Below, piece after piece: positions 609 through 64,000 of a DNA stretch of 64,000 nucleotides. Position 1 is the first letter of the stretch, and the number at the start of each line of letters is the position of its first letter. Source of the stretch: Morinoia aosen (taxonomy: Eukaryota; Arthropoda; Malacostraca; Amphipoda; Talitridae); contig CM059573.1 of NCBI GenBank assembly GCA_030386875.1, positions 29,181,891 to 29,245,890 of the forward strand, in the 5' to 3' direction. A model generated the notes under the pieces. The model had not been told where the DNA came from. It worked only from the letters and a program-made list of their open reading frames with translations, and did no database searches. A program made the translations under genes and the position numbers.

Positions 609-3600
609 TGATGCACGGTCCACTCCCACCGTTCCTACTGAAACTGGAGGCTCTACGTACCCTACGAAAGAACAGGTCCCCCATCCCACCATTCCACTCC
701 CACCACTAATACCTAGCAAGTTAAATCCGTGCGTTCTTTTTGCGCCACTAATTATTTGTTTCCATTTAGATCAGAACTAATTGAGTAGTATTTCACAAGC
801 AGATTTCCCGTTAATGTTTTGTTTGAGTTTATCATTCAGAATATTTCCTTGCTGCACAGGAATAACGATAGGAAAAAATTTTAATTTCAATTTAGTTATT
901 GAGATAACTTTATCTGTAATATTGACGTCGTGCGAAGACCGCTCATAGCGTTGTATTACCAACATCATCAAACAGCTGAACTATGATACAAATTGTGAAA
1001 CCAAGAGCTTGAGCAAAATTTAAAGTTTCTTTTCATAAGGTCTTCGATATTTCCTGTCATGGCTGGGAGTAGATAGACAAGTGTGGTGTAGCATAAAATA
1101 CGCGTTCACTTGGGTATGAGTCACAGAGATTGGAACACTGCGTGGCACACAACCCTCTAGTGGCTTCGGCGATTGTGAGAAGTGTTTTTGATTCTAGAAA
1201 TGGAGGCTTTTCCATTTCAATAATAATAAGTAACCATTATTTTTCCACTCTTGCGTGCTATAATACCTATTTAAATTCATCACCAGCTAAGATCTCGGGC
1301 TTTCACCCTGAAAAGAATCGTCAATGACCTCATTGGAAACGCAGAGTTGCACCGCCACCGAAAATTTGCCGGTAATCGTCAGGGCTGGAAAACTGAAGGC
1401 AGCCAATTTTTTGGGGAGCTCAACCTTTTCTCATTGTGTTGCAGAGGGTTCTACTGCGAGCTATCAAGATAATTTGAAGAACCATCTCATTTCAACATTG
1501 TTTGAATTTTCTACGGAAAAAGCTGTTCGTGTGATCATTTTTTGTACCACGCTTTATTGGAAATAAAGTCTTTTTTCTTCAGCAAGCTGGTTTTTCGAGA
1601 AATTAAAACTGCTCTCTATGGTCGAACATTCCCTGTTCGCATTGTTATTTTCAGAGGTAGAGACAAGTTTTTAAAGAAGCGTTCGGGGTGACCGTGGATT
1701 CATAGCGTCGACGTTATGATAAATATGAATGGCCAGAGGGAGATTCAGTGAGAATGACAGGAATTCAAATTTTTACGGCGACTCTCTTGTGAGAAAATAA
1801 ATATACTAAAGACTTTAGAACATGAGTGTACCTCGTAGTTGTTGTTCCGAAGAATTAAGCGAGCCATTTGCATGCAAATCTAATAACATTTTTGTAAAAT
1901 TTCACCCACTTTCATATGATTTAAAGGTATTCCAAATATAATGCTCTCGTGGTTCAACTACGTACTGCTATCAGAGAATATTCTAGAAATTTATTTTAAT
2001 TCGCTAGAGGCAATGATGATCGTAATAATACAACGAAACGAACTTCAATTCTTTGTGATACATAACTAGAGTGATATACGAAGCAGGAATGTACCAAAGC
2101 ATTTCAATCATCCTGAATTAAACGTGCTCCCATTATTCTTACTACGAAATAACTTCCCTTATAAATTTAAGCCATTAACATGGATTCAGTGCAGCTGCCG
2201 TCATTTTCGTCACCATTTTATCAGGTGTAATCACCGAAATGCCCAGCTCACGGCCAAACGCTAGCAGTTAAGCAGCATTTACGCGACTAAATGTCATTGC
2301 TACATCGACAATAGCGTCAAAACTTTTCCATTTGGTTCCCGCATAACGGCAGCTTACCAAATTGAAATAGTTTCAAGTAGAAATACCAGTACGCATTATC
2401 CCCCGAATTTGGATCATTAACAGCATATGTAAACCATGTCTCATTACAAATTTTTACTTATAATTTGAAAATTTAATTTGATAGTCAGAAAACTTTGGCA
2501 GAGAAACACTGGTTCATTTTCGACCAAGAAGTAATAGCACTCCGTAGAGCTGATGCGCTGCTTTGCTGATTGCAGGAAGGATTGAGGTCGAAACGACAGC
2601 ATGCGAGGCGCTGTGCATCGCCCGGAGAGAGACGCAAACTAATTGTTCGTATTCCCTTGACTCTCTTAATGTGTCCTCGTGGAGCTCATTAACATGACCA
2701 TAACTCATTAGTTATTCCAGACATAACTCGATATCTCATTACGTGGACCATAACCAGCGGAACTTAGGCGACAGGGGCTTCTTAATGAGTGGTGTGCTTT
2801 GACTCATTATTGCGTGTTGCCTCCCTAATGAGCCGAGCAGCGTGCTCTCGAGGGTGGCCTCTTCGCTGAAGAGTATTGTATAGTTGACGGGGTCTCCACG
2901 ACGCGCCCTGGCTCCTGGAGACGCTGATAAGGACTTCGGATCGAGGAAGCCAGTTGCTGATGAAGCCAAACTTCAATTGACGAAATGAACGACGCTGCCA
3001 GAAATGCTAACGAGGATTTCGCGCAGTGAAAATGGGAGATGATAAGGGGAAGTAGAATTTACTTAAGGCACGGCGATAAAACCCCAAGTGTCTGCAACGG
3101 GATCACCAGAAGGAAAATTTTCTATTCAGCTGCGTGATGTCCTTAGGGGAATATGGAGGTACAATGAAATAAAATGAGTAATTGGACGCAGACATTTTCA
3201 TTTTTTGACATTTAGACAAAATAGTGACATGTTAAACTAATAATATGATAGCAGTAACACATACAAACATATATCGTTAACTGATACATGATATATATCG
3301 AATGCGTTTAATTTCTTCCGCATTTTAACAAATAGATGGCGAAAAACGTATTTGGAAACTTTTATTCGTCCTATAAAATTCCCCAAATTTTGTAAATCCA
3401 AAATAATTTTTGCCTGTGTTTTCCAGTCAACTAGAAAACACACCGGGAGCTTATGGTAGGTTATCAGTGTGACTGCTATCATTGTTGCATGATAACTCTT
3501 GTGTTAACGTTGCAACATACCTAAGTAAAATGTGCTCTCAGAATGCAAGAAGAAGCAAATAATTTTAGAATTTAAAAATCACAAAAGCTATAAAACTATT

Positions 3601-5799
3601 TAATGTTCGTGTTTGTTCAGTAGATTTCATTGCGAAGAAGTAAAAAGAGTCAGGGACAACGACAAACATGCCGAGATCGATCGGGAGCGCTTCAAAAAAA
3701 ATTTAAAAGAAGTTCGAGAAAGATGTTGTGTTAAGGTAAGATTATTTCCTTTGTCTCTCTAGAAATTATTTTCCTTTATTATTTCCTTTGTCTCTAGATA
3801 AGGATTATTATTTCCTTTGTCTCTCTAGAAATTCTGCTAACAAACCTCAGCATGGATGCACCAGCGTTTGCAAGAAAACAATAACAATAATACTATTTTA
3901 CCTAAAGACCGACAAACAAAATTTTTCTTTGTGTCCCAATACTTATTGGATCTTATTGTAAACAGCGAGCACCATATGGAAAACAAACAGGGCTCCAAAT
4001 TCATAGCTCATCATCTGAAAAAATGTTAAGCCTCAAAATAATTGAAGTTGGCAAGAAGAATCGACTATGAAATACAGTAGGTATTATATATTTTTGTAAA
4101 TCTTGAAACTAGGGAAGGAATGAGCTTTATAATGCACTACAGTTTTTCCAACTGTTTAAATTTATTGTGAGGGAAAGCACTCGAACTTAAAAAAATCCCC
4201 GTTAACATGGTTATCAAGTTGAGCCAAATGATTGAAGAGAAGACCGATTTGAATGGAACTTAACGGTGGCCTAAATTGAGTAAATTAGATGCTCCGATGT
4301 TATACGAGATTCTAGATTGGTTTACTACCGCGAGCTAAAAGGCCTCCTGACACGCTCGAGTAAGCATTAGGAAATTTAATAAAAATTTTGACATCTATCT
4401 TTTACACAGAATCGTCAGAGCTGGCAGCTTACGTTGCTGTGGTGGGACGCATTAATTGGTGCGCCGCTCGCTATTTGAAGAGTACATCAGCGCGTAACCT
4501 ACATCAGTTGGTTATATCACCGCATGCAGATCATGGATGGTCTCTCAGCGTTGTCTGTAACGGATATAATAACGGATACTTACTTCCAGGAATGTCGTCC
4601 AAGGATCATCTCACCACAAGCTCCTGGGTTTGAATTTTGTAGTAGGAACAATTTTGGACCCTTAAAATATTTGAAGAGCGTAGTGAGTATTTATCTGTGG
4701 AAGCGACAGCCTACTATTTAAAAATTCGAAACTCTCGAACAATTTCAACAATTTATTTCCACAAGCACTACATGAGTTGGGTCATTATTTAGAACTATCA
4801 AAGTAGACAAGTTGAGCTATTTCTCTGTAGTTCTTATCCCGACTCAGTTCATCCTATGGGTTCCGGAACATTTTATGGGTTCTAAACTCACAATTTCTTT
4901 TTATCTTCAACACTTAACTCGACCCTTAAACTGTTACCAGGGGATGTAATTATATCTAATACACACATTTATACGTAAATATATGAGAGTGTATATACGT
5001 ACGTGTAGTCTAATTGGGAGTTGGGAGCAGCCCTGGGAAAGAACTATATTTTTTATTTGTCGAATAAATATTTTTTATAAAGTACATATTTTATTACATG
5101 ATGACTTCATAATATATATCAATTCATATACTCTAAATATATTTATCCTATAATATGTATGTTGTAATTTACATATTATAAACCAATTTCTTTATTAAAA
5201 AAACGAAAAATTATAAGAAGATCGGATAATTACTTCTTTTCTAATTAATTATGAACTTATATAATATTAATTCCGCTTTACCTACCTCGCTTAGTAGGGT
5301 TTGTGAGATATTTCTTAAACTGGAATTTTAGTTTAAGGTAGCATAAGCGAGAAGGTAAAGAGTTGTACTTTCATGGCATGTTTTCAAAATAAGTGTTTTT
5401 CGTTCATATGTATTGGTCTGGGTAAAATTCTCCAGCATAAACTTACCACGGCTGCTAATTAGAGGGTTCTAGGGTTTAGTATGTACTAGACTGGTCGAAT
5501 AGCTGTTCTTTGGTGTGAAGAGATGAGAAATGATAAAAGCTTTAATTACAACCTTGGGTAATAATGCCGGCGAAAGTTGTTTATTCAATAACGGGTTTAA
5601 CATCAGTTTTCATTCGGATTAATTATCATCATTTTGAACTATTGAGAAATGATGAGTCAGATCTTTCTTAATAACTGCTAAATTTATCACTATGCCGATA
5701 AAAAATTATATCCAAAACTCTCCTAATTGTAAAAACTATTCAGAGCCGGATAAGTTATAATAAAGGAGCTTATTAATTTACTTTTGTTTCTCGATAAAG
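609..5799. other. AT-rich non-coding stretch with no recognised gene
   Basis: Only short open frames occur and none resembles a family I know. The frame at 1324-1566 (plus) ends on an AATAAA-containing stretch, but its translation does not look protein-like. A locally GC-richer patch at about 2510-2990 is open in two minus frames, with no splice signals convincing enough to call an exon. From 4970 to 5250 the DNA is extremely AT-rich. A small tandem repeat inside is listed separately. Confidence 0.5.
3741..3829. repeat. Short tandem repeat, about 3 copies
   Basis: The motif ATTATTTCCTTTGTCTC is repeated at about 3741, 3777 and 3807, each copy followed by a CTAGA box. Spacing is uneven (36 and 30 bases), so this is a degenerate local duplication rather than a true satellite. 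Confidence 0.7.
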
Positions 5800-29057: not shown

Positions 29058-30090
29058 TTATTGTTCAAAATGTCTACCATGAGCATCGATACTAGTGCGA
29101 CAACATCGTCGGAGGGAGTTGCGTACGTTGCGAAAGATTCTAGGCACTCCAGTAATGTCTCCAACAGCGACTGCAATAATTCTGGCGACAAGATTTTCTT
29201 CGGACTCGACAGGTGATTCATAAACAAGACTTTTCATGCGCCCCAACAAAAAAAAATCTAACGGAGTCAGATCAGATCTTGCCGTCCAGGATACAGGACC
29301 TTTACGGCCAATCCATCGATTTGGAAATTGAAGGTCAAGAAAACGTCTCACATTCACAGCAAAGTGTGCCGAAGCTCCATCATGCTGAAACCACATTCTT
29401 TTAAGAATATCCAACGGAATATCCAATGAAAAAATTCTGTAAGCATTTCCAGTACGAAACGCTCTGGCAGAATGTATGGGCCAATGGTTTTATTGTGAAC
29501 GATAACTGACAAACATTGACAGTGTAGCAGTGTTGGTATCCCTGTTCATGGATAACATGAGGGTTGTTCGTTTGCCATTCGTGAAAATAATAGAAATTGA
29601 ATATTCCATCGCGGTTGAAGGTAGATTCATTCGTGAACAACACGTGTTCAGCGAAATGGGCATCTTCTAACTAATGATTCAAAAGCCACTGCGCGAATCG
29701 TTCCCGAAGAGCGTAATCTGCAGGACGTAGTCCCTGAACTCTCTGGCAGTAACACGAATGATAATTATTCTAATTCAATCTTCGCCACGGAGCAGTGTGA
29801 TTTTGATTTCCCATAGATGGTGCTGCGACGCGAGTGCTCTTACGTGGGTTTTGACTGAAATGTTCCAACACACATTCCTCATGATCCAGATCAGGCTGTC
29901 TTCGGCGACCAGCATTCACTCTGTTTGCACTGAAACTATCGTTCTCACACAATCTTTGGTGCAAAGCAGTGAATAATCGGTGAACAGGCACCTGTTGGGG
30001 TGACGTTCTTGATACATTCATGCATTACCATGAGCAGAACCATAGACGAAATGCATATCAGCCATTTTTGCATTTGTTGGGCGGTTCATT
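29058..30090 (-). pseudogene. Transposase of the 28821-31188 element, HTH (DUF4817-like) plus DDE domain, broken
   Basis: The minus-strand translation begins near 30090 with NAKMADMHFVYGSAHGNA. After a frameshift at about 30018 comes the helix-turn-helix (VPVHRLFTALHQRLCENDSF, then LEHFSQNPRKSTRVAA). The same frame continues through two stops into LRPADYALRERFAQWL and LFTNESTFNRDGIFNF. After a second frameshift at about 29405-29426 come MWFQHDGASAHFAVNVRRFL, FPNRWIGRKGPVSW and LTPLDFFLLGRMKSLVY. The catalytic positions read Asn (where the family has Asp in FTDE), Asp in QHDG, and Asp in LDFFL. The first catalytic acid is therefore also lost. The stop at 29058 is probably the natural end. Comparison is from memory of many near-identical insect transposases. 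Confidence 0.85.
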
Positions 30091-43042: not shown

Positions 43043-44079
43043 ATATATGAGCCATAACAGTAAGTATGTGATCGAGAATATAACCGAAATAATGCGAATG
43101 AACCCTTTGAGTACAAAAATCAAAGGATAGAAAGGAAAAATTTCCTGTGGGAAAAGTTGTCAGTGCCCTGAAATTTATATCAGTGAAATTGCGTTAAGTG
43201 TGGGTTTTTTGCTTAGGCAAGCCCCTACTTTATTTCAGGGATGGAAAAAACCCTGGGTTTTTTAAAAAAAACCCAACCCACGTGGGTTTTTTTTGGGTTA
43301 AATTGGGTTTTTTTTGGGTTTTATTGGGTTTTTTTGGGCTTTATTGGGTTTTTTGTAATACCTTTTTTTGTTTAAAAGAGTTATTCACATAGGTCCAGTT
43401 GCCTCTCTTCCAGATTTATATACACTTATTGAGTAAATATTGTTATTTGATTAATTTATTTCCAACATTATATTACATCATTATATGAATTATTACATTC
43501 TATGTACAATATATGAATTAAGTTTGTCCATCACAATTACCACTTACCAATTACCATATGCATAGGGACATAGCTGTGCAGTCTGTAAAGATATAAGATG
43601 TGCAAAGAGAATCGCTATGCTTGTCAATTCATAGTAAGTTGTTTTAGCAGAAGACAGACGCAAGTCATGTGAGAGGGAAGCACCATGCAGATCATAAGTA
43701 ACCACCACAAGCAACTTGAAGCAAGACAGCTGCACATCACTCAACAGTCATGCTGTTAACAACTTAACATGTGTATTGTGTGAGCTGGAGGGCTTAGCAG
43801 TGCAAGCCAAGTCAGTCAACCACACTGTTACATGTTACAACATGTAGTGACATGCCAAAATTTTTTCTTTAAATTTGTCAAAAAAATCACTTTTTGCAGT
43901 ACAGGATAGCAACAAATACTCAAACCATTAGAAATAAATGCTCTAACAGATTCCATCGTCAAATTTGTTCCAGTGCAGCTTGAATGCTCACCATAGGCCA
44001 GTCGTTTATTTACTTTCTTACCCCATGATGGCTGCGGTCGTGTCTTGCCCCATCTGACTATAATTGTTAGACTTATTTC

Positions 44080-44522
44080 CGGCAAAGCTCTCAAAGGAGA
44101 CAGATATTGAAGAGTGGTTGGCTGAGTACAATCCGGAGTTGATCGGTACGATTTATTTGTATAAATTGAAGGACTCCAACATCTTCCCAAAACACATGTT
44201 CAACATGAATATCACTAAGACAACGACTCCTCATTGATGGTGGGATATTCAAGACATGAAACAGCAGAAAATGCAGATTCTTGAAAAAACACTGGCAGAG
44301 GGTTTCTGCAAGTTTATAAGCAATCTTCATTCTTGCTTTGCAAGTTCAGGATTCGTTGAGAGAATTTTCTAAACATTTGGAATTGTGTGGAATAAATTGA
44401 GAAATAGATTAGGATCGGAACGCGCACAGAAATTGGTCTCATTATATCGCCACCTCACAAATGATCATGATGTGGATGACAATGATAAAATGGCAGTGGA
44501 TGTAGAAAGAGAAATAAAGTAG
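44080..44522 (+). pseudogene. hAT transposase C-terminal dimerisation region, outer copy
   Basis: The plus frame reads ETDIEEWLAEYNPELIGTIY and DSNIFPKHMFNMN, then a stop before WWDIQDMKQQK. Next come SSGFVERIF, a stop, TFGIVWNKLRNRLGSERAQK and LVSLYRHLTND, ending at TAG 44520-44522. This is the hAT C-terminal block, where 'SS...ERiFS.fg...sK.RNRL..erl.kLv' forms the dimer interface. The stop before TFG sits where the family has Ser. Both internal stops are shared with the inner copy. Confidence 0.8.
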
Positions 44523-44549
44523 TACTGTAGTAGCGATCTAGTCTAGAAG

Positions 44550-46212
44550 CAGGGTTGGCACATAAAAAACCCACCCAAAAAAGCTCAAAAAAAACACATT
44601 AAAAACCCACTAAATAGTGTTTTTTTGGCATTTTGGGGTTTTATTGGTGCTATTTGCATTTCACTTGTTTTCAAGCTTATAGAATCAAAATGAGCTAAAT
44701 ATTTTTATTGTCAAAAATTTGTACAAGGCATTTGCATGACAACGACAATAAATATTGAAAAAAAAACACTATAAAAATAAAATAAGAAAAACCCTAATCA
44801 CAAAAAAAAACTCGAGGGGCTAGTATATTTCCATGAGTTCCATTTCCAAAGTAAAAAACAAAAACTTAGAAACAAATGCAGTTTGACTATTTGAGAGTAA
44901 AGAGACTTCTGAATTCTTCCTCTATTTTCTAGACTAGACCGCTAATACAGTACTACTTTATTTCTCTTTCTACATCCACTGCCATTTTATCATTGTCATC
45001 CACATCATGATCATTTGTGAGGTGGCGATATAATGAGACCAATTTCTGTGCGCGTTCCGATCCTAATCTATTTCTCAATTTATTCCACACAATTCCAAAT
45101 GTTTAGAAAATTCTCTCAACGAATCCTGAACTTGCAAAGCAAGAATGAAGATTGCTTATATACTTGCAGAAACCCTCTGCCAGTGTTTTTTTAAGAATCT
45201 GCATTTTCTGCTGTTTCATGTCTTGAATATCCCACCATCAATGAGGAGTCGTTGTCTTAGTGATATTCATGTTGAACATGTGTTTTGGGAAGATGTTGGA
45301 GTCCTTCAATTTATACAAATAAATCGTACCGATCAACTCCGGATTGTACTCAGCCAACCACTCTTCAATATCTGTCTCCTTTGAGAGCTTTGCCGGAAAT
45401 AAGCTAACAATTATAGTCAGATGGGGCAAGACACGACCGCAGCCATCATGGGGTAAAAAAGTAAATAAACGACTGGCCTATAGTGAGCATTCAAGCTGCA
45501 CTGGAACAAATTTGACGATGGAATCTGTTAAAGCATTTATTTCTAATCGTTTTAGTGTTAGTTGCTATCCTGAACTGCAAAAAGTAATTTTTTTGACAAA
45601 TTTTTGTACATGTTGTAACATGTAACAGTGTGGTTGACTGACTTGGCTTGCACTGCTAAGCCCTCCAGCTCACACAATACACATGTTAAGTTGTTAACAG
45701 CATGACTGTTAAGTGATGTGCAGCTGTCTTGCTTCAAGTTGCTTGTGGTGGTTACTTATGATCTGCATGGTGCTTCCCTCTCACATGACTTGCGTCTGCC
45801 TTCTGCTAAAACAACTTACTATGAATTGACAAGCATAGCGATTCTCTTTGCACATCTTATATCTTTACAGACTGCACAGCTATGTCCCTATGCATATGGT
45901 AATTGGTAAGTGGTAATTGTGATGGACAAACTTAATTCATATATTGTTCATAGAATGTAATAATTCATATAATGATGTAATATGATGTTGGAAATAAAGT
46001 AATCAAATAATATTTACTCAATAAGTGTATATATATATATCTGGAAAAGAGGCAACTAGAGCCATGTGAATAACTCTTTTAAACAAAAAAAGGTATTACC
46101 AAAAATCAATAAAGCCCCCAAAAAAACTATAAAACCCAAAAAACCCAATTTAACCCAAAAAACCCGCGTGGGTTGAGTGTTTTTAAAAAACCTAGGGTTT
46201 TTTCCATCCCTG
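44550..46212 (-). mobile_element. hAT element, inner copy inserted into the outer copy in opposite orientation
   Basis: Starts CAGGGTTGGCACATAAAAAA and ends GGTTTTTTCCATCCCTG. Perfect 8-bp duplications TCTAGAAG flank it (44542-44549 and 46213-46220). Length is 1663 bp. Its sequence is the reverse complement of the outer copy over its whole length, giving tail-to-tail arms of about 1.3 kb. It has the same transposase tail fragment on the minus strand. Confidence 0.9.
44953..45429 (-). pseudogene. hAT transposase C-terminal dimerisation region, inner copy
   Basis: Same frame and same two internal stops as 44080-44522, on the opposite strand, ending at the stop at 44953-44955. Identical stop positions in two independent insertions mean the source element already had them. 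Confidence 0.8.
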
Positions 46213-46623
46213 TCTAGAAGACAGAGGAAGAATTCAGAAGTCTCTTTACTCTTAAATAGTCAAACTGCATTTGCTTCTTAGTTTCTGTTTTTACTTTGGA
46301 AATGGAACTCATAGAAATATACTAGCCCCTCGAGTTTTTTTTTGTGATTAGGGTTTTTCTTATTTTATTTTTATAGTGGTATTTTTTTCAATATTTATTG
46401 TCATAGCCATGCAAATGCCTTGAACAAATTTTTGACAATATAAATATTTAGCTCATTTTGATTCTATAAGCTTGAAAACAAGTGAAATTCAAATAGCACC
46501 AATAAAACCCAAAAAAGCCCAAAAAAACCCACTATTTAGTGGGTTTTTTAATGTGGGTTTTTTGGGGCTTTTTTGGGTGGGTTTTTTTGGGTGGGTTATT
46601 TATGTGCCAACCCTGCTTTATTT

Positions 46624-59687: not shown

Positions 59688-60405
59688 GGATGTGTTGGGA
59701 GTGCTGCAGGGATGTGTTGGGAGTGCTGCAGGGATGTGTTGGAAGTGCTGCAGAGATGTGTTGGAAGTGCTGCAGAGATGTGTTGGGAGTGCTGCAGAGA
59801 TGTGTTGGGAGTGCTGCAGAGATGAGTTGGAAGTGCTGCAAAGATGTGCTGGAAGTGCTGCAGAGATGTGTTGGGAGTGCTGCAGAGATGTGTTGGGAGT
59901 GCTGCAGAGATGTGTTGGAAGTGCTGCAGAGATGTGTTGGAAGTGCTACAGAGATGAGCTGGAAGTGCTGCAAACATGTGCTGGAAGTGCTGCAGAGATG
60001 TGCTGGAAGTGCTACAGAGATGTGCTGGAAGTGCTACAGAGATGTGCTGGAAGTGCTACAGAGATGTGCTGGAAGTGCTACAGAGATGTGCTGGAAGTGC
60101 TACAGAGATGTGCTGAAAGTGCTACAGAGATGTGCAGGAAGTGCTGCAGAGATGTGCAGGAAGTGCTGCAAAGATGTGCAGGAAGTGCTTCAGAGATGTG
60201 TTGGAAGTGGTGCAGAGATGTGCAGGAAGTGCTGCAGAGATGTGTTGGATGTGCTTCAGAGATGTGTTGGAGGTGCTGCAAAGATGTGTTGGAAATGCTG
60301 CAGGGATGTGTTTGAAGTGCTGCAGAGATGTGCAGGAAGTGCTGCAGAGATGTGCAGGAAGTGCTGCTGAGATGTGCAGGAAGTGCAGCAGAGATGTGCA
60401 GAGTG
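59688..60405. repeat. 22-bp minisatellite, about 32 units
   Basis: The unit is GATGTGTTGGAAGTGCTGCA plus GA, with variants TGTTGG, TGCTGG and TGCAGG, and GCTGCAGA or GCTACAGA. Variants are zoned: TGTTGG dominates to about 59950, TGCTGG with CTACAG at about 59960-60120, then mixed TGCAGG and TGTTGG. A six-unit block is duplicated: the rare GATGAG unit recurs at 59821 and 59953, exactly 132 bases apart. Since 22 is not a multiple of 3, all frames repeat every 66 bp and several stay open on both strands. These are not genes. Confidence 0.95.
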
Positions 60406-60659: not shown

Positions 60660-63600
60660 GTGCTCGTTGTGGTGGTGGCGCACTGTATTGTGTGGCGCAC
60701 TGTGTTGTGTGGTGTGGTGGTGTACTGTGTTGTGTGGTGTGGTGGTGAACTGTGTTGTGTGGTGTGGTGGTGCACTGTGTTGTGTGGCGCACTGTGTTGT
60801 GTGGTGTGGTGGTGTACTGTGTTGTGGTGTGGTGGTGTACTGTGTTGTGCGGTGTGGCGGTGTACTGTGTTGTGAGGTGTGGTGGTGTGCTGTGTTGTGT
60901 GGTGTGGTGGTGTACTGTGTTGTGTGGCGCACTGTGTTGTGTGGTGTGGTGGTGTACTGTGTTGTGGTGTGGTGGTGCACTGTGTGGTGTGGCGCACTGT
61001 GTTGTGTGGTGTGGTGGCGCACTGTGTTGTGTGGTGTGGTGGTGTACTGTGTTGTGTGGCGCACTGTGTCATGTGGTGTGGTGGTGTACTGTGTTGTGTG
61101 GTGTGGTGGTGCACTGTGTTGTGGTGTGGTGGTGTACTGTGTTGTGGTGTGGTGGTGCACTGTGTTGTGTGGTGTGGTGGTGTACTGTGTTGTGTGGTGT
61201 GGTGGTGCACTGTGTTGTGTGGCGCACTGTGTTGTGTGGTGTGGTGGTGTACTGTGTTGTGTGGTGTGGTGGTGCACTGTGTTGTGTGGCGCACTGAGTT
61301 GTGTGGTGTGGTGGTGTACTGTGTTGTGGTGTGGTGGTGTACTGTGTTGTGTGGTGTGGTGGTGTACTGTGTTGTGTGGTGCGGTGGTGCACTGTGTTGT
61401 GTGGTGTGGTGGTGTACTGTGTTGTGTGGTGGTGCACTGTGTTGTGTGGCGCACTGTGTTGTGTGGTGTGGTGGTGTACTGTGTTGTGGTGTGGTGGTGT
61501 TCTGTGTTGTGGTGTGGTGGTGCACTGTGTTGTGTGGTGTGGTGGCGCACTGTGTTGTGAGGTGTGGTGGTGTACTGTGTTGTGTGGCGCACTGTGTCAT
61601 GTGGTGTGGTGGTGTACTGTGTTGTGTGGTGTGGTGGTGCACTGTGTTGTGTGGTGTGGTGGTGCACTGTGTTGTGTGGTGCACTGTGTCATGTGGTGTG
61701 GTGGTGTACTATGTTGTGTGGTGTGGTGGTGCACTGTGTTGTGTGGTGTGGTGGTGCACTGTGTTGTGTGGTATGGTGGTGTACTGTGTTGGGTGGCGCA
61801 CTGTATCATGTGGTGTGTTGGTGTACTGTGTCATGTGGTGTGGTGGTGCACTGTGTTGTGTGGTATGGTGGTGTACTGTGTTTTGTTGCGCACTGTGTCA
61901 TGTGGTGTGGTGGTGTACTGTGTTGTGGTGTGGTGGTGCACTGTGTTGTGTGGTGTGGTGGTGTACTGTGTTGTGTGGTGTGGTGGTGCACTGTGTTGTG
62001 TTGTATGGTGGTGTACTGTGTTGTGTGGCGCACTGTGTCATGTGGTGTGGTGGTGTACTGTGTTGTGGTGTGGTGGTGCACTGTGTTGTGTGGTGTGGTG
62101 GTGTACTGTGTTGTGTGGTGTGGTGGCGCACTGTGTCATGTGGTGTGGTGGTGCACTGTGTCATGTGGTGTGGTGACGTGTACTGTGTTGTGTGGTGTGG
62201 TGGTGCACTGTGTTGTGTGGTGTGGTGGCGTACAGTGTTGTGTGGTGTGGTGGTGTACTGTGTTGTGTGGTGTGGTGGTGTACTGTGTTGTGTGGTGTGG
62301 TGGTGCACTGTGTTGTGTGGTGTGGTGGTGTACTGTGTTGTGTGGTGTGGTGGTGTACTGTGTTGTGTGGTGTGGTGGTGTACTGTGTCCTGTGGTGTGG
62401 TGGTGCACTGTGTCCTGTGGTGTACTGTGTTGTGGTGTGGTGGTGTATTGTGTTGTGGTGTAGTGGTGTACTGTGTTGTGGTGTGGTGGTGTACTGTGTT
62501 GTGGTGTGGTGGTGTACTGTGTCCTGTGGTGTGGTGGTGTACTGTGTTGTGGTGTGGTGGTGTACTGTGTTGTGGTGTGGTGGTGTTCTGTGTCCTGTGG
62601 TGTGGTGGTGTACTGTGTCCTGTGGTGTGGTGGTGTACTGTGTTGTAGTGTGGTGGTGTACTGTGTCATGTGGCGTGGTGGTTTACTGTGTCCTGTGGTG
62701 TGGTGGTGTACTGTGTCCTGTGGTGTGGTGGTATACTGTGTCCTGTGGTGTGGTGGTGTACTGTGTCATGTGGCGTGGTGGTTTACTGTGTCATGTGGTG
62801 TGGTGGTGTACTGTGTTGTAGTGTGGTGGTGTTCTGTGTCCTGTGGTGTGGTGGTTTACTGTGTCCTGTGGTGTGGTGGTGTACTGTGTCCTGTGGTGTG
62901 GTGGTGCACTGTGTCCTGTGGTGTGGTGGTGTACTGTGTTGTGGTTTGGTGGTGTACTGTGTTGTGGTGTGGTGGTGTACTGTGTCCTGTGGTGTGGTGG
63001 TGTACTGTGCCTGTGGTGTGGTGGTGCACTGTGTCCTGTGGTGTGGTGGTGTACTGTGTTGTGGTGCTGAGGTGTACTGTGTTGTGGTGTGGTGGTTTTC
63101 TGTGTTGTGGTGTGGTGGTGTACTGTGTTGTGGTGTGGTGGTGTACTGTGTTGTGGTGTGGTGATGTACTGTGTCCTGTGGTGTGGTGGTGTACTGTGTT
63201 GTGGTGTGGTGGCGCACTGTGTTGTGGTGTGGTGGCGCACTGTGTCCTGTGGTGTGGTGGTGTACTGTGTTGTGGTGTGACGTGGCGCACTGTGTCCTGT
63301 GGTGTGGGGGTGTACTGTGTTGTGGTGTGGTGGCGCATTGTGTCCTGTGGTGTAGTGGTGTACTGTGTTGTGGTGTGGTGGCGCACTGTGTCCTGTGGCG
63401 TGGTGGTGTACTGTGTTGTGGTGTGGTGGTGTACTGTGTTGTGGTGAGGTGGTGCACTGTGTTATGTGGCGTGGTGGTGTACTGTGTCATGTGGTGTGGT
63501 GGTGTACTGTGTTGTGGTGTGGTGGTGCACTGTGTCATGTGGTGTGGTGGGGTACTGTGTTGTGGTGTGACGTGGTGCACTGTGTTATGGTGTGGTGGTG

Positions 63601-64000
63601 CACTGTGTCATGTGGTGTGGTGGTGCACTGTGTCATGTGGTGTGGTGGTGCACTGTGTGATGTGGCGTGGTGGTGCACTGTGTCATGTGGTGTGGTGGTG
63701 TACTGTGTTGTGGTGTGGTGGTGTACTGTGTTGTGGTGTGGTGGTGCACTGTGTCACGTGGTGTGGGGGGTTACTGTGTTGTGGTGTGGTGGTGCACTGT
63801 GTTGTGGTGTGGTGGTGCACTGTGTCATGTGGTGTGGTGGTGCACTGTGTCATGTGGTGTGGTGGTGCACTGTGTCATGTGGCGTGGTGGTGCACTGTGT
63901 CATGTGGTGTGGTGGTGTACTGTGTTGTGGTATGGTGGTGTACTGTGTTGTGGTGTGGTGGTGCACTGTGTCATGTGGTGTGGTGGTGTACTGTTTGTGG
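60660..64000. repeat. GT-rich satellite, 17/23/25-bp units, continues beyond the window
   Basis: Basic unit of 25 bp: ACTGTGTTGTGTGGTGTGG followed by TGGTGC or TGGTGT. A 23-bp form lacks one TG, and a 17-bp form reads ACTGTGTTGTGTGGCGC. Unit types are zoned: TTGTG forms dominate to about 61580, TCATG forms are interspersed to 62170, TCCTG forms predominate from 62380 to about 63420, and TCATG returns to the end. The plus strand is almost pure G and T with A only in TACT or CACT. Long frames on both strands (up to 589 codons) arise from the missing stops and encode only repeats. GG runs spaced by T or TGT could favour two-tier G-quadruplexes. Confidence 0.95.

What the first reader, a model, noticed from the sequence alone, without database searches (positions are those of the whole stretch)
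43236..46615. hAT element inserted into its own relative in opposite orientation, both insertions datable from 8-bp duplications
The outer copy is bounded by CTTTATTT twice and the inner copy by TCTAGAAG twice. The inner ends (CAGGGTTGG and CCATCCCTG) are the same two distinct ends as the outer, reversed. Self-insertion produced a palindrome with arms of about 1.3 kb that is prone to hairpin formation and could be a source of long double-stranded RNA and siRNAs.
Basis: partly seen in the sequence, partly recalled or inferred. Interest (0 to 1): 0.75.

Follow-up and report, generated by a model that had tools for sequence, protein, structure and literature searches.

The report
Self-nested hAT transposon amplified as unit
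A jumping gene that once landed inside a relative of itself, back to front, did not stay a one-off: the resulting double element went on jumping as a single unit and now sits in about fifty places in this two-billion-base genome, although such double elements are expected to break chromosomes and be weeded out.

Summary
A 1.7-kb hAT-type element (43236-44549 plus 46221-46615, duplication CTTTATTT) holds a second, inverted copy (44550-46212, duplication TCTAGAAG); rejoined outer and reversed inner align end to end at 96.4%. The interpretation needs one large correction: the inner insertion did not happen here. The same nest, with the same inner junctions, occurs at 49 places by left junction and 52 by right junction, 46 with both. 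Of 41 copies fetched, 39 could be delimited and 33 of these carry perfect outer 8-bp duplications, of 32 sequences. An inner-private deletion is in 48 of 49 composites and in 0 of 18 sampled single copies; the 37 inner arms tested form one clade. So one self-insertion made a 3.4-kb palindromic composite that then transposed as a unit. This is the architecture of maize double Ds, said to break chromosomes and be selected against, yet here it amplified. Inner ends carry fewer putative transposase-binding repeats than outer ends, which may explain why the outer ends win. Hairpin RNA was not testable.

The parts
43228..43235 (.). left copy of the 8-bp duplication of the composite's own insertion at this locus (CTTTATTT)
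   Evidence: differs from copy to copy
43236..44549 (+). left part of the outer hAT-type element (long palindrome arm); includes TCTAGAAG at 44542-44549, the left copy of the inherited inner duplication
43236..43385 (+). outer 5' end with clustered GGGTTTT repeats (putative transposase binding sites)
   Evidence: mean 6.6 GGGTTTT in the first 150 bp of 41 outer 5' ends, 3.5 in 37 inner 5' ends, 0 in the internal stretch of this copy
44067..44522 (+). remnant of the C-terminal coding part of a hAT transposase in the outer copy, with in-frame stops TGA 44235-44237 and TAA 44370-44372
   Evidence: frame, place; PF05699 E=0.0021-0.0023, below cut-off; open frame of the related copy L133 passes the cut-off
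44550..46212 (-). inner hAT-type element, inverted; carries private alleles, among them a 21-base deletion found in 0 of 18 sampled single copies
44911..46212 (-). second long palindrome arm (pairs with 43236-44549)
44550..44910 (-). 3' part of the inner element; inverted match of 46221-46615 (second, crossing arm pair)
46213..46220 (.). right copy of the inherited inner duplication TCTAGAAG
   Evidence: found in 40 of 41 fetched composites
46221..46615 (+). right part of the outer element, 3' end CCAACCCTG
46616..46623 (.). right copy of the 8-bp duplication of the composite (CTTTATTT)

Best explanation
The feature is a composite, non-autonomous hAT transposon. Shown: two different copies of one 1.7-kb hAT-type family were joined once by an insertion with an 8-bp duplication, in opposite orientation; the resulting 3.4-kb unit then spread through the genome with a new 8-bp duplication at nearly every site. 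Inferred: a hAT transposase supplied in trans pairs the outermost two of the four ends, cuts out the whole composite and reinserts it. Inferred and less certain (about 0.4): the pairing is biased to the outer ends because these keep more GGGTTTT-type subterminal repeats than the inner ends, which lets the unit move intact and lowers mixed-end reactions of the chromosome-breaking double-Ds kind. Occasional inner excision (footprint elements), arm-to-arm conversion and inversion between copies are by-products. The confidence given is for the shown part and the trans-mobilisation.
For: Recurrent junctions: 49 left (81 matches, 32 set aside), 52 right, 46 with both. Outer duplications: 33 of 39 delimited copies perfect 8/8, of 32 sequences, 3 more at 7/8. 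Inner right duplication TCTAGAAG in 40 of 41; inner left TCTAGAAG in 25, TATAAAAG in 16. Single origin: the 37 inner arms tested are one clade (100/99); 40 of 41 outer arms are together at 100/92; outer and inner distances correlate, Mantel r 0.51, 0 of 2000 permutations as high, 37 composites. Inner-private 21-base deletion in 48 of 49 composites. End bias: outer 5' end richer in GGGTTTT than inner in 37 of 37 composites; outer 3' end richer in 30 of 36, equal in 4, poorer in 2.
Against: The end-bias argument rests in effect on one founder, since all composites share it, and the binding motif is assumed, not tested. No intact transposase of this family was found, so use of the outer ends is read from duplications alone. 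Three of 39 delimited copies lack matching outer duplications. The arm trees mirror each other only in part (r 0.51), as conversion or homoplasy would give. The outer arm of C8:818868 falls outside the other outers (83/54), and its middle alleles are inner-type. Only 41 of about 53 loci were read.
Confidence: 0.9

Rival explanations
1. Recurrent self-insertion: TCTAGAAG is a hot spot of the family and many copies were hit independently.
For: The site is close to a palindrome; other self-nested arrangements exist in the family (L125, L114); footprint-like scars at the same site occur in elements that branch outside the main composite clade.
Against: Independent insertions would bring in different inner copies. 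The 37 inner arms tested form one clade and all carry the 21-base deletion, absent from 18 of 18 sampled single copies; by pattern the deletion is in 48 of 49 composites. Roughly 580 other places keep an unfilled site (629 less about 49 inner copies).
Confidence: 0.03
2. The composite spread by segmental duplication or ectopic recombination rather than by transposition.
For: Two copies on C12 share 290 of 290 left-flank and 110 of 110 right-flank bases, so one duplication did occur. Two copies on C14 have swapped duplications, as recombination would leave.
Against: 33 of 39 delimited copies have perfect 8-bp duplications, of 32 different sequences.
Confidence: 0.04
3. Same composite, but its spread had nothing to do with end strength: the founder sat in a permissive place or drifted up.
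For: Transposon families often descend from few source copies (general knowledge); the motif counts describe a single founder.
Against: Outer ends are richer in the repeat than inner ends in 37 of 37 (5') and 30 of 36 (3') composites, the direction the end-strength model needs.
Confidence: 0.45
4. The palindrome is kept because its hairpin transcripts make siRNA or piRNA that silences the single copies, giving the composite a regulatory role.
For: Arms of about 1.3 kb, 96% alike in the window copy; about 50 copies; the sampled single copies are more diverged.
Against: No RNA data; no promoter was looked for; nothing indicates selection on the arms.
Confidence: 0.08

Closest known systems
Maize double Ds (McClintock; a Ds inside an identical Ds in inverse orientation)
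   Same: Non-autonomous hAT element inside its own relative, opposite orientation, 8-bp duplications (the double-Ds structure is recalled; PMC3260210 section 13 read: nested Ds acquire chromosome-breaking properties, would be selected against, no double Ds detected in B73).
   Different: Here the structure is an amplified family of about 50 dispersed copies in an unnamed 2-Gb genome; outer and inner arms differ by about 4% and in number of end repeats.
Mutator-like elements with tandem terminal repeats (PMC3310237; abstract and passages seen)
   Same: Transposons with extra, inner ends that amplified (13 and 29 copies of two element types).
   Different: Another superfamily; duplicated ends mostly in tandem; no whole inverted element inside; nesting is only one of the origins that paper considers.
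KolobokP composite-like transposons (PMC9587614; abstract seen)
   Same: Eukaryotic DNA transposon built from repeats that can also leave on their own.
   Different: Long terminal direct repeats around a coding region with transposase and endonuclease; not self-nested, not inverted, not hAT.
Alternative transposition of Ac/Ds (sister-chromatid and reversed-ends transposition; PMC3744419, passages seen)
   Same: Explains what several nearby hAT ends can do, including chromatid bridges and breaks.
   Different: Describes rearrangements, not a stable multiplying composite.
[quoted passage not shown] passages seen)
   Same: Insertion of a transposon into its own kind of sequence.
   Different: Autointegration disrupts one excised molecule (circles, inversions); here two different copies were joined.

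Membership tests
hAT superfamily | 8-bp target duplication | tested here: met
   33 of 39 delimited composites 8/8; single copies with 8/8 as well: L104, L109, L111, L117, L118, L119
hAT superfamily | short terminal inverted repeats of the CAGGG..CCCTG kind | tested here: met
   CAGGGATGG / CCAACCCTG, 8 of 9 complementary
hAT superfamily | transposase with hAT C-terminal dimerisation region | tested here: met
   as a remnant only: window copy PF05699 E=0.0021, 18.2 bits, below the 21.4 cut-off; open 152-aa frame of the related copy L133 E=4.1e-7, 30.1 bits
hAT superfamily | intact transposase in an autonomous member with the same ends | tested here: inconclusive
   not found: one search scored 150 of 2192 candidates for the C-terminal part, one search scored 150 of 351 for DUF659; by eye no pair of hits lies together. 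Both lists are capped.
hAT superfamily | subterminal repeats near both ends | tested here: met
   GGGTTTT clusters at all four kinds of end, 0 in the internal stretch of the window's outer copy; binding not tested
double Ds (structural type) | element inside a close relative in inverse orientation with 8-bp duplications at both levels | tested here: met
double Ds (structural type) | chromosome breakage in presence of transposase | not testable with these tools
   needs cytology or a breakage assay
Ac/Ds family of maize | 11-bp ends C/TAGGGATGAAA and TTTCATCCCTA (as quoted in PMC3260210) | tested here: not met
   ends here are CAGGGATGGAAA and ATGTGCCAACCCTG; only the first 8 bases agree at the 5' end

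The most novel reading that the evidence does not exclude
A tamed double Ds: a self-nested, palindromic hAT became a transposon family in its own right because loss of binding repeats in the inner ends left the outer pair dominant. Unequal end strength would then be the general condition under which composite DNA transposons can be born in eukaryotes without breaking chromosomes.
Probability: 0.35. Interest if true: 0.78.

Novelty: new variant of a known kind. Interest (0 to 1): 0.62.

Why it matters
Nested Ds elements are held to be rare probably because they break chromosomes and are selected against (PMC3260210, section 13). This family shows that the same architecture can multiply and persist. 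It gives about fifty natural replicates in which the fate of a four-ended hAT can be read: whole-unit transposition, probable inner loss with footprints, arm-to-arm conversion and inversion between copies. It makes the question of what keeps a double element from breaking chromosomes testable by exchanging ends. It also shows a eukaryotic DNA transposon becoming composite, a habit better known from bacteria.

Tried and rejected
Recurrent insertion at a hot spot: rejected by inner-private alleles. Assembly artefact: rejected by 46 places with both junctions. Segmental duplication as the main route: rejected by different duplications, accepted for the C12 pair. Footprint elements as the precursor of the composite: rejected, because composites have TCTAGAAG at the right inner junction and TCTAGAAG or TATAAAAG at the left, while the scars are altered. 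That the scars come from an early composite by inner excision is my reading; against it, the four in the tree lack the outer-derived allele at column 226, so they split off before the sampled composites' common ancestor, and they could stem from another insertion at that site.

Autonomous partner: sought by protein and by DUF659, not found. L133 and L134, fetched as candidates, hold copies of about 1.7 and 2.0 kb with no longer transposase frame recognised in the ORF lists. Empty-site paralogue of the window insertion: among the 80 matches listed none spans the joined flanks; 40 of 2940 candidates were scored. Literature: ten searches; no amplified self-nested hAT in what they listed. Several listings were capped or off topic (912 papers matched, 20 shown; 237, 15 shown), and the library holds only open-licence papers. 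No expression or small-RNA data could be used.

Counting notes. Of 81 left-junction matches I count 49 by the letters before CAGG: 25 exact, 3 with one change, 21 of the TATAAAAG kind. The other 32 are ends whose flank only resembles the pattern: mostly single copies by inference, at least one (C24:19863609) probably the outer right end of a composite; of these 32 I read one (L128). Of 49, 48 have the inner deletion and 46 the right junction. Three places with the deletion but no left junction: C2:58126629 and C20:56674073 lie beside right junctions and look like composites with lost or altered left parts; C24:65437105 is unresolved. C14:16292984 and C14:16292600 point in opposite directions 384 bases apart, as an inverted isomer would; not read. 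I read 41 of about 53 composites. The 18 single copies in the tree are not a random sample: they come from the head of the listing and from the best matches. Before the tree, 7 loci too short over the arm were dropped, one of them the footprint locus L130; 4 of 41 inner arms (two with insertions, two not delimited) were left out. The single-copy end counts (10 and 16 ends) include two footprint elements, L131 and L132, and six 3' ends from five loci added by hand.

Full report
What is there. The window holds a 3380-bp unit at 43236-46615 flanked by CTTTATTT. Its outer part is one hAT-type element split in two, 43236-44549 and 46221-46615. Its inner part, 44550-46212, is a second element of the same family in reverse orientation, flanked by TCTAGAAG. 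Rejoined outer (1709 bp) and reversed inner (1663 bp) align end to end, 1599 of 1658 aligned bases identical, 13 gap runs. The geometry is two crossing inverted pairs: a long one (about 1.3 kb, spacer 361 bases) and a short one (361 against 395 bases).

It is not a single event at this locus. A query across the left inner junction matched at 40 of 40 scored places (2690 candidates in the first look), at 94-100% identity and across the junction. The exact 16-base junction occurs 25 times, 0 in the reversed control. With up to three mismatches the left junction gives 81 matches, of which I count 49 as composites (counting notes in Tried and rejected). The right junction gives 52. Forty-six places have both at the expected spacing; the union is 55 entries, about 53 loci if two pairs of entries belong to one element each. 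An unfilled site, as in a single element, occurs at 629 places, about 49 of them inner copies of composites, so roughly 580 elements are single or otherwise not nested at that site.

The composite is the mobile unit. I read 41 loci, all with the nested structure. Thirty-nine could be delimited on both sides: 33 have identical 8-bp outer duplications, 3 match at 7 of 8, 3 do not match. The 33 are of 32 sequences; the shared one belongs to two C12 copies with identical flanks, a segmental duplication. By contrast the inner duplication is the same in nearly all: right copy TCTAGAAG in 40 of 41, left copy TCTAGAAG in 25 and TATAAAAG in 16. The latter I read as a subfamily with two substitutions in the left copy, since its right copy is unchanged.

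One birth. In a tree of 100 arm sequences (41 outer, 37 inner, 18 single, 4 footprint) the inner arms form one clade (100/99), and 40 of 41 outer arms form another (100/92); the bootstrap had not fully settled. The order of copies within the two halves is related: Mantel r 0.51, 0 of 2000 permutations as high, 37 composites. Of 17 markers that separate inner from outer arms, 10, including a 21-base deletion, show the inner state in none of the 18 sampled single copies; the deletion is in 37 of 37 inner arms, while a few other markers have exceptions, most in C3:50345108. By pattern the deletion occurs at 53 places in the genome: in the inner arm of 48 of 49 left-junction composites, twice in outer arms, three times elsewhere. 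The inner and outer copies were therefore different copies before they were joined, so this was not autointegration of one molecule.

Age. Thirty-six full composites differ by 2.2% on average (0.06-3.6%), and by 1.3% from the majority base. The sampled single copies differ by 6.8% on average over the arm; the sample is not random. The composite looks like a younger branch of an older family. No calendar date can be given without a substitution rate.

What the four ends do. A short motif, GGGTTTT, is clustered at the ends and absent from the internal stretch of the window's outer copy. Means per end (150 bp at 5', 130 bp at 3') are 6.6 (outer 5', 41 ends), 3.5 (inner 5', 37), 4.3 (outer 3', 38), 2.6 (inner 3', 37); in single copies 4.5 (10 ends) and 3.6 (16 ends). 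Paired within composites, outer exceeds inner in 37 of 37 at the 5' end; at the 3' end in 30 of 36, with 4 equal and 2 reversed. If these are transposase-binding repeats, as in other hAT elements (general knowledge), the outer pair is the stronger pair. This is my preferred reason why the unit moves whole; it is inference from one founder.

Traces of instability. (a) Altered duplications at the nest site, TCTAGAA-CT-TAGAAG or TCTAGAA-CG-TAGAAG, occur at 8 places with at most one mismatch (7 and 1), plus one weak match; five of the eight were read (L126, L127, L130, L131, L132). They look like hAT excision footprints of an inner element. Two of them, L131 and L132, have perfect outer duplications of their own, so they moved again or were left by separate losses. 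In the tree the four used sit beside, not inside, the main composite outer clade, which fits an early loss but does not prove it. (b) Two outer arms carry the inner deletion with neighbouring inner alleles: C8:818868 and C7:52046772, arm-to-arm conversion. Overall conversion is slight: outer and inner of the same copy differ by 4.15%, of different copies by 4.33%. (c) Two composites on C14 about 12 kb apart in opposite orientation have exchanged outer duplications (CCTTACAG/ACTGCAAG against ACTGCAAG/CCCTACAG, one base off), as an inversion between them would leave.

Family. The ends, the 8-bp duplication and a remnant of the C-terminal transposase part make this a non-autonomous hAT. The window copy scores just under the Pfam cut-off; an open frame in a related 1.7-kb copy passes it. 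The same TAA stop is in the outer arm of 33 and the inner arm of 35 of 36 composites, and also in some single copies; only the C-terminal part of a transposase is present at all, so the composite cannot make a full one. The partner was not found.

Compared with what is known. The architecture is that of double Ds. The section read for this states that nested Ds elements are rarer, probably because they acquire chromosome-breaking properties and would be selected against, and that no double Ds was detected in B73 (PMC3260210, section 13). The nearest amplified precedents met are Mutator-like elements with tandem ends (PMC3310237, passages) and KolobokP (abstract); neither is described there as an inverted self-nest. 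The searches named in Tried and rejected listed no amplified self-nested hAT; subscription journals are mostly missing from that library. I rate it a new variant of a known kind.

Noticed in passing
C14:36313647-36317427 and C14:36325444-36329224 of G000: Two composites in opposite orientation, about 12 kb apart, with exchanged outer duplications: probably a small inversion between two composites.
   Followed up: partly
C8:17152734, C15:68324204, C17:74870055, C24:56538863, C1:56962532, C4:97070305, C20:44790558, C25:54722609 of G000: Footprint-like altered duplications at the nest site (7 with CT, 1 with CG), as if an inner element had been excised; the C17, C24 and C1 places are known by pattern only.
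   Followed up: partly
C14:16292600-16292984 of G000: Right and left inner junctions in opposite orientation 384 bases apart, as expected of an inverted isomer of the composite after recombination between the short arms.
   Followed up: no
L125 (C12:74564220-74566200) and L114 (C7:2354420-2356420): Other self-nested or end-to-end arrangements of the same family at other positions.
   Followed up: partly
window 46624 onward: The right flank of the composite is an interspersed repeat with dozens of listed copies, most of whose matches begin within a few bases of the duplication, so the composite landed at the very edge of another repeat.
   Followed up: partly
window 59689-60399 and 60692-63999: Long tandem arrays: 22-base unit, about 32 copies, and 25-base unit, about 139 copies.
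   Followed up: no
window 29058-29489, minus strand: Open frame of 143 aa that looks mariner-like to me from memory; no Pfam match at E 0.01.
   Followed up: partly
L134 (C25:17984700-17988900), 2391-4001: A 536-aa stop-to-stop frame beside another copy of the family, with a repeated N-terminal part; not identified.
   Followed up: no
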